Of a DNA stretch of 64,000 bases, positions 34,333 through 35,534 are shown in pieces (the stretch's first letter is position 1; each line of letters starts with the position of its first letter). The stretch comes from Fervidobacterium pennivorans. GTDB lineage: Bacteria > Thermotogota > Thermotogae > Thermotogales > Fervidobacteriaceae. The stretch lies in contig NZ_CP011393.1 in assembly GCF_001644665.1 (NCBI RefSeq), positions 1 through 64,000 of the forward strand, in the 5' to 3' direction. A model generated the notes under the pieces. That model had not been told where the DNA came from. It made no database searches and saw only the letters and a program-made list of their open reading frames with translations. The position numbers and the translations under genes were made by a program.

Positions 34333-34635
34333 ATAGAGTAGAAGTTGGGTAATTAGTTAGTTTACCCAGCATTCTTTCACACCACCGTACGTACCGTCCG
34401 GTATACAGCGGTTCTTTAGTTGACTTGCGCTATTGCGCACTGGCTTGTGTTTCTGGAACTGTCGTTGATGGCATTCTGTTCAGCTACCCATCACTGAGTG
34501 GGTTACCAATAGGTGTATCCGTCCTGGGGGTAAGAACGACCGCTTTCATCCTATGTACTCGCCACATTTTACGTTCCCACTACCAAGCCCATAACAAAAC
34601 TTTCACTGCCGAGCTATCGCTCATGCTGAGTGCAC
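34333..34635 (-). mobile_element. ORF-less group IIC intron-like element (probably decayed)
   Basis: About 303 bases on the minus strand. The 5' end GTGCACTCAGCATGAGCG matches the pattern of IIC intron starts (GUGxxCxCxGCAUGxG). A perfect domain V is at 34414-34379: ACCGCTGTA pairs with TACGGTGGT, then a 2-base CG bulge, then TACC/GGTA under a GGAC loop, with CGC at the catalytic-triad position as in IIC introns. A domain VI-like hairpin (GGGTAA...TTACCC) and a CTACTCTAT end follow. No reverse transcriptase is encoded; domain IV is only a small GCGC hairpin. From memory, the sequence is strikingly like the Oceanobacillus iheyensis IIC intron. It begins one base after a terminator stem, the known insertion preference of IIC introns. 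Confidence 0.8.
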
Positions 34636-34636
34636 A

Positions 34637-34670
34637 AACAAGAGGCTCAGGATAACCTGAGCCTCTTGTT
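34637..34670 (-). terminator. Intrinsic terminator of the rubrerythrin-like gene, cut by the intron
   Basis: A perfect 15-bp stem AACAAGAGGCTCAGG/CCTGAGCCTCTTGTT with a 4-base loop, 26 bases after the stop codon at 34697. On the minus strand only TTGTTT remains before the intron 5' end, so the U tract appears to have been separated from the stem by the insertion. Confidence 0.85.
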
Positions 34671-34696: not shown

Positions 34697-35203
34697 TTAG
34701 AAGAGAGGTTCAAAACCTTGCTGGTTCCAATAACTTCTTTTCGCTTCCTCGTAAGCTTCTTCTAAAGCTTTTTTGTGACCGTTTTCCCAAGTTCCAAGTA
34801 AATTCAAAATCTTTTTCATTTCAGGGTCTGATACTTTCTCTGCGCTCTCTTTGTAAAATTTCTCAAAGTCTTCTTCAATAAGGTAAGCCATTCTCAATAT
34901 CGCAAGGTCATTTGCCAACTGGTCTAATGAGCCATTCACCATCTCTGATTTTTCTCTTCCTTCAAAGAAGTCTGTTCGAACTATTGCTTGTTGTGCATCG
35001 TCAAGAGTCACTTCTACATTGTTTTCTACTTTCTTCATTAAATTCTCAATAAACCTGACATGGTCCTCCTCCATGTACGCAAGTCCTTCCAGAAGGTCTT
35101 TGATTTCTTTACTTGATACCTTTTTCGCCTTTTCTTTGTAAAATTCTCTTCCTTCGATTTCTCGCATCAATGCAAATCTCAAGATACCTACCACTTTCTC
35201 CAT
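34697..35203 (-). CDS. Rubrerythrin-like/ferritin-like diiron protein
   Basis: 168 aa, four-helix bundle. Putative iron ligands are Glu/His residues in EIEGREFYKEKA, YMEEDHVRFIE, LIEEDFEKFYKE and ENGHKKAL, the ExxH pattern of the rubrerythrin family. No rubredoxin-type CxxC domain is present, so it resembles the short 'sulerythrin/YciF-like' members. Such proteins reduce peroxide in anaerobes; that role is inferred. Start ATG 35203 follows AAGGGGGTG. It overlaps nothing and lies 38 bases after the thioredoxin-like gene, a plausible redox pair. Confidence 0.82.
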   Translation of the reverse strand: MEKVVGILRFALMREIEGREFYKEKAKKVSSKEIKDLLEGLAYMEEDHVRFIENLMKKVENNVEVTLDDAQQAIVRTDFFEGREKSEMVNGSLDQLANDLAILRMAYLIEEDFEKFYKESAEKVSDPEMKKILNLLGTWENGHKKALEEAYEEAKRSYWNQQGFEPLF

Positions 35204-35240
35204 AAACCACACCCCCTTGTGAAGAGTGATAAGTTGTGTT

Positions 35241-35534
35241 TTACTTCTCATCTACTTCTATACCAAGTATATCATACATCCTTTGAATGTGTTCTCTTAT
35301 TTCAAATTCAGAAAAGTTTCTTGCAAATCTTTTCAACTCATTTCCCTCACTGTCCACGAATATTATTGTTGGCACTGTGAAAACCATGTTCTGACCAGCT
35401 ATCTCGGGGTTTTCAATCACATCTACAACTTCCAGATCAAGATTGTAGTCCCCGGCTATTCTCTTCATTTTTGGTAAAAAAGCAACACATACACCACATT
35501 TATCGTTTTTGAAATACCATGCTCTTATTTTCAT
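35241..35534 (-). CDS. Thioredoxin-like protein
   Basis: 97 aa. A thioredoxin fold with the active-site-like CGVC at residues 13-16 (YFKNDKCGVCVAFLP) and the cis-Pro loop FTVPTIIFVD. Cytoplasmic, no signal peptide. A short form related to thioredoxin domain proteins; it may reduce the neighbouring diiron protein or cellular disulfides. GGAGGGAAATC precedes the ATG. Confidence 0.85.
   Translation of the reverse strand: MKIRAWYFKNDKCGVCVAFLPKMKRIAGDYNLDLEVVDVIENPEIAGQNMVFTVPTIIFVDSEGNELKRFARNFSEFEIREHIQRMYDILGIEVDEK

What the first reader, a model, noticed from the sequence alone, without database searches (positions are those of the whole stretch)
34333..34670. ORF-less group IIC intron-like element sitting exactly behind a transcription terminator
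Minus-strand sequence holds a near-canonical domain V (9-bp stem, 2-base bulge, short upper stem, CGC triad), a domain VI-like hairpin, and a 5' end of the GUGxxCxCxGCAUG type, starting one base after the 15-bp stem of the rubrerythrin gene's terminator. IIC introns are known to insert after terminator hairpins. It is shorter than the about 400-base IIC ribozyme I recall and has no maturase, so either it is decayed or it is a compact non-autonomous intron mobilised in trans.
Basis: partly seen in the sequence, partly recalled or inferred. Interest (0 to 1): 0.68.

Follow-up and report, generated by a model that had tools for sequence, protein, structure and literature searches.

The report
Dead remnant of a mobile intron
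A 303-base stretch inserted exactly in the tail of a transcription terminator is the shrunken remnant of a group IIC intron (a mobile self-splicing RNA) that has lost its enzyme gene and the parts it needs to recognise its target, so it is a molecular fossil rather than a working compact intron.

Summary
In detail: window 34635..34333 (-) is a group IIC intron derivative of 303 nt. Its domain V-VI is one of only two credible RF00029 hits in the complete 2.06-Mb genome (29.9 bits, E 4.9e-4; the second copy scores 37.3 bits; both below the gathering score of 40). A sister genome has the precise empty site (CTTGTTT|TTAAA, no target duplication) in the terminator T-tract. The genome and the eight other genomes of the genus searched lack any group II reverse transcriptase. 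The closest autonomous relative found lies in a distant MAG ('bacterium GBS-1'; 81-95% DNA identity by segment) and carries a complete domain I and an open 494-codon RT frame. Against it, the window copy, the second copy and its orthologue all share a 158-nt deletion of the domain I core (with the predicted EBS1 loop) and a 1252-nt RT deletion; the window copy also lacks domain III. Helices decay about as random mutation predicts. Two different sites sharing one set of deletions remains the interesting point: either the shortened RNA moved with help in trans, or one copy converted the other.

The parts
34637..34670 (-). terminator stem-loop of the rubrerythrin-like gene (5' exon side); T-tract interrupted by the element
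   Evidence: sequence; uninterrupted T-tract CTTGTTTTTAAAGG in sister genome G004
34333..34635 (-). group IIC intron-derived element, copy 1, 303 nt, GTGCAC...CTCTAT
   Evidence: empty site in G004, ends match second copy and GBS-1 intron
34573..34635 (-). 5' end and first hairpin of domain I (element positions 1-63)
   Evidence: 82.5% identity over 63 nt to GBS-1 IIC intron L178
34569..34573 (-). junction of the 158-nt domain I deletion (IC/ID with predicted EBS1 loop missing)
   Evidence: L178rc 276-433 absent in all three copies; RF02001 matches L178 but not the element
34478..34569 (-). 3' strand of domain I, then domain II hairpin (one mismatch, one wobble)
   Evidence: 84% over 98 nt to L178; pair counts
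34475..34478 (-). junction of the extra deletion specific to this copy (domain III and start of RT remnant missing, about 107 nt that copy 2 keeps)
   Evidence: alignment with copy 2 and G004 copy
34435..34475 (-). remnant of the RT reading frame up to about codon 71
   Evidence: 39/41 identity to L177 RT frame
34417..34435 (-). junction of the 1252-nt RT deletion, then remnant of the last RT codons (GCGCAAGTCAACTAA)
   Evidence: L177rc 217-1468 absent
34381..34412 (-). domain V, all 13 pairs intact, CGC triad
   Evidence: RF00029 29.9 bits together with domain VI; fold
34333..34371 (-). domain VI hairpin and 3' end (one C-A mismatch in the stem; CTCTAT instead of CTCGAT)

Best explanation
The element is a relic of a group IIC retro-intron. 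An autonomous IIC intron of the kind seen in the GBS-1 MAG entered an ancestor of this lineage (shown: high DNA identity despite distant hosts; inferred: horizontal transfer). IIC RNPs reverse-splice into the T-tract behind terminator hairpins, which gives a precise insertion without target duplication (the precise insertion is shown here by the empty site; the mechanism is known IIC biology). A copy lost most of its RT gene and the domain I core that carries EBS1 and docks domain V (shown; RT template jumping during cDNA synthesis is an inferred cause). That shortened form, or its sequence, came to occupy two terminators, either because a helper intron mobilised it or because one copy converted the other (undecided). 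The helper is gone, this copy lost domain III as well, and its helices now drift. It most likely neither splices nor moves and has no function; it only cuts short the T-tract of the upstream terminator.
For: Domain V-VI hit and only two copies in the genome; no TIGR04416 or RVT_1 in the genome nor TIGR04416 in nine genomes of the genus; empty site in G004 and no intron in G008; GBS-1 relative with full domain I (RF02001, 147 bits) and RT (428.8 bits to TIGR04416); same deletions in all copies; 36 changes since the common ancestor break 9 pairs against 11.3 expected at random, P=0.21; the G004 copy has its domain V triad mutated from CGC to CAC.
Against: This copy's own domain V is still fully paired, and the orthologous copies at the second site differ by only 8.1% while four-fold sites differ by 17-31% and one intergenic region by 19.5%, which could hint at constraint; the test has little power. 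Sharing of deletions by two insertion sites is not what simple decay after insertion predicts.
Confidence: 0.84

Rival explanations
1. The shortened (RT-less, domain I-less) element was itself a mobile non-autonomous unit: a full-length helper supplied RT and, in trans, the missing domain I part, and the short RNA was inserted at both terminators; only later did it die.
For: Copies 1 and 2 sit at different terminators, each precisely inserted, and share the same deletions and small indels. Copy 1's site is empty in G004 and G008. ORF-less IIC introns with one shared RT deletion sit behind three different terminators in related genomes, with RT-encoding copies alongside. A review reports rescue of an EBS1 stem-loop deletion in trans for yeast bI1 (PMC4424553).
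Against: The deleted part is much more than the EBS1 loop; no helper in any genus genome; only two sites known; the same pattern follows if a full-length intron at one site was converted by the shortened copy. The sequence tree puts copy 1 outside the pair of copy 2 and its G004 orthologue (8 shared derived sites against 1 and 1), which speaks against a recent hop from copy 2.
Confidence: 0.22
2. It is still a working compact ORF-less intron that splices, alone or with host factors, as C.te.I1 of Clostridium tetani does.
For: Intact domain V, near-canonical ends; an ORF-less intron in an RT-free genome is known once, C.te.I1 (PMC4424553).
Against: No domain I core, no EBS1 loop, no domain III; domain VI and domain II stem mismatches; it lies behind a terminator, between genes, so splicing would serve nothing.
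Confidence: 0.03
3. It is a conserved non-intron RNA, or the remnant has been taken over as a regulatory or structural RNA.
For: Slow divergence at the second site.
Against: Absent from the other genus genomes apart from G004; fold no more stable than shuffles (z -1.12); no detectable structural constraint; no match to another Rfam family; this copy is a presence/absence polymorphism between close genomes.
Confidence: 0.04

Closest known systems
Group IIC (bacterial class C) introns, e.g. the GBS-1 intron L177/L178 and those matched by RF02001/RF01998/RF00029
   Same: 5' GTGYG..GCATG and 3' CTACTCGAT-like ends, domain V, insertion in the tail of a terminator, RT frame remnants
   Different: lacks RT, domain I core with EBS1, and (this copy) domain III
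ORF-less group II introns of Thermosynechococcus elongatus (TeI3 series, PMC2882425) and ORF-less IIC introns L017/L018/L027 found here
   Same: RT removed by one internal deletion that leaves N- and C-terminal remnants; deletion shared by copies at different sites
   Different: those keep a ribozyme and live with RT-encoding relatives; this one lacks the domain I core and has no helper in its genome
C.te.I1 of Clostridium tetani
   Same: ORF-less group II intron in a genome without any related IEP
   Different: C.te.I1 self-splices (PMC4424553); this one lacks the parts to do so
Truncated or inactivated bacterial group II introns
   Same: inactive copies are the majority of bacterial group II introns (PMC4424553)
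   Different: here both ends are intact and all losses are internal

Membership tests
Group IIC intron | domain V-VI matching the group II model | tested here: met
   RF00029 29.9 bits, genome-wide E 4.9e-4, but under the gathering score 40
Group IIC intron | insertion directly behind a terminator hairpin, precise, no target duplication | tested here: met
   empty site in G004; second copy also behind a terminator
Group IIC intron | domain I with EBS1 | tested here: not met
   158 nt missing against L178; no RF02001 match in either copy
Group IIC intron | domains II and III | tested here: not met
   domain II present but with one mismatch and one wobble; domain III absent in this copy, partial in copy 2 (27.4 bits to RF01998, below gathering)
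Group IIC intron | class C RT/maturase in domain IV (or in trans) | tested here: not met
   only remnants; none in the genome
Group IIC intron | splicing and retrotransposition activity | not testable with these tools
   needs RNA work
Non-autonomous ORF-less IIC intron mobilised in trans | complete ribozyme with deleted RT | tested here: not met
   domain I core and domain III missing
Non-autonomous ORF-less IIC intron mobilised in trans | helper RT in the same genome | tested here: not met
Non-autonomous ORF-less IIC intron mobilised in trans | same deletion form at several sites | tested here: inconclusive
   two sites share the deletions; conversion not excluded
Degenerate group IIC intron copy (relic) | clear descent from a IIC intron with loss of essential parts | tested here: met

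The most novel reading that the evidence does not exclude
A group IIC derivative lacking the domain I core and RT (about 400 nt) spread as such to at least two terminators, meaning that an RNA without its own exon-binding site was inserted with domain I and RT supplied in trans by a helper intron: a natural bacterial intron-in-pieces mobility.
Probability: 0.12. Interest if true: 0.72.

Novelty: new member of a known kind. Interest (0 to 1): 0.32.

Why it matters
As a relic it mainly explains an otherwise odd 303-base intergenic block and shows that IIC introns passed through a genus in which no sampled genome keeps a group II RT. The shared internal deletions at two terminators, and the similar RT deletion boundaries in separate ORF-less IIC introns of the phylum, give a small natural data set for asking whether incomplete IIC RNAs can be mobilised in trans; no trans-splicing group II intron had been reported in bacteria at the time of the 2015 review (PMC4424553).

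Tried and rejected
Rfam at gathering threshold and at E<=10 on the small stretch gave no group II hit; the genome-wide RF00029 scan did. My first impression that the domain II hairpin showed compensatory changes between copies was wrong: aligned to the parent, copies lose pairs one-sidedly. A DNA pattern for the domain I deletion junction found no other case in 84,980 species genomes or in viral contigs (close relatives of the window may be left out there). The 76-aa plus-strand frame inside the element (34425-34655) was considered and rejected as a chance frame over the relic. GBS-1 as a member of the same genus was rejected: RNase P/SRP region only 74% identical over part of its length and no rubrerythrin match. 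Literature searches found no earlier report of group II introns in this genus.

Full report
What is there. On the minus strand of the window the rubrerythrin-like gene (35251..34697) is followed by a terminator hairpin (34670..34637), one T, and then GTGCACTCAGCATGAG. From 34635 to 34333 runs a 303-nt element that ends CTACTCTAT. It contains a domain V with all pairs intact and a domain VI hairpin. Rfam found no group II match at gathering threshold, but a genome-wide scan with RF00029 found exactly two credible hits in the complete 2.06-Mb genome: 37.3 bits (E 7.8e-6) at 657672-657752 and 29.9 bits (E 4.9e-4) here; the third was noise. BLAST with the element finds the same second place, 87-89% identical in two pieces separated by about 110 nt that this copy lacks. 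The second copy (408 nt, L004:1846-2253) also lies directly behind a terminator, CCCTTTCTTTTT|GTGTG.

Precise insertion. In sister genome G004 the rubrerythrin terminator reads CTTGTTTTTAAAGG; here it reads CTTGTTT[303 nt]TTAAACG. Joining the flanks of the element gives the G004 sequence at the junction, with no target duplication. G008 also has no element at this place. The second copy has an orthologue at the same place in G004, whereas G008, G007, G006 and G002 show none there. Both insertions are inside terminator T-tracts, the known target of IIC introns (PMC4424553, PMC8919778).

Parent. The closest autonomous relative found is in the MAG 'bacterium GBS-1' (LEKQ01000008.1), reached by a 21-base pattern from the 5' end. 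One copy there (L178) has complete domains I-III (RF02001 147 bits, RF01998 68 bits) and is then interrupted; another (L177, cut by the contig end) has an open 494-codon frame with YADD, 428.8 bits to TIGR04416, and domains V-VI. Segment identities to the three elements are 81-95%. The GBS-1 host is not of this genus: RNase P/SRP region 74% identical over part of the query and no rubrerythrin match. Horizontal transfer of the intron is inferred.

What is missing. Against this parent all three elements lack L178rc 276-433, i.e. 158 nt that make up most of RF02001, including the terminal loop GCAAAACA. That loop and its edge can pair with the parent's own 5' exon (TTTGT with ACAAA) and with that of copy 1 (TGTTT with AAACA), so it is the predicted EBS1 (inference). 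All three also lack L177rc 217-1468 (RT codons 71 to 488 of 494) and a few bases near CCCGGGGAGG, and share an extra T. Copy 2 and the G004 copy have lost the 3' part of domain III; copy 1 lacks domain III wholly. None of the 9 genus genomes has a group II RT; 25 of 103 genomes of the phylum sample have a match to the RT family.

Decay or function. With the parent as outgroup the tree is (copy 1,(copy 2, G004 copy)): 8 shared derived sites against 1 and 1. Since the common ancestor, whose 36 tested pairs were all intact, 36 changes have broken 9 pairs against 11.3 expected when the same changes are placed at random (P=0.21): no sign of selection on structure, though power is low. The G004 copy has mutated its domain V triad from CGC to CAC. 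The fold of the whole element is not better than that of shuffles (z -1.12). One point does not fit neatly: copy 2 and its orthologue differ by 33/408 (8.1%), less than four-fold sites of nearby genes (20/105, 34/188, 8/47, 58/188) and one intergenic region (43/221); the 54 bases just upstream of the second copy are identical in both genomes as well, so local rate or recombination may explain it.

How two sites came to share deletions. Deletion after a single insertion cannot explain it, since the flanks differ. Either the short RNA was inserted twice with help in trans, or full-length and short copies exchanged sequence by gene conversion. Precedent for trans mobilisation of ORF-less forms exists in T. 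elongatus (PMC2882425), and in this phylum I found ORF-less but ribozyme-complete IIC introns sharing one RT deletion at three terminators, with RT-encoding copies in the related genomes. But mobilising an RNA without EBS1 would be exceptional, so conversion is at least as likely. Neither is shown.

Verdict. An ORF-less, internally deleted group IIC relic: ordinary in kind (most bacterial copies are truncated or inactive, PMC4424553), neat in its precise ends and shared deletions. It is filed as derived from IIC introns, not as a functional IIC intron, because domain I, domain III and the RT were tested and not met.

Noticed in passing
L017 (G068), L018 (G079), L027 (G068): ORF-less, ribozyme-complete IIC introns (about 640 nt) sharing one roughly 1254-nt RT deletion (codons 65 to 484 of 488) behind three different terminators, with RT-encoding copies in the same genomes; the RT deletion boundaries resemble those of the window's element (codons 71 to 488 of 494).
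   Followed up: partly
L140:3647-3887 and L166:6207-6600 (Bacillota MAG AS08sgBPME_442): Two further internally deleted IIC remnants with both ends intact; the first (241 nt) sits behind a terminator stem and jumps from domain I into the end of the RT gene, the second jumps from domain II into domain VI.
   Followed up: partly
L004:1846-2253 and L052 (G004): Second copy and orthologue diverge by 8.1%, clearly less than four-fold sites and an intergenic region between the two genomes; reason unknown.
   Followed up: partly
G012:C3:103321-103773 and G014:C5:33324-33764: Reverse-transcriptase-like stretches inside frames of about 1,400 codons in the same family, far below the group II cut-off.
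   Followed up: no
L178 (GBS-1 MAG): An otherwise complete IIC 5' half is interrupted just after domain III by unrelated sequence, possibly an insertion element.
   Followed up: no
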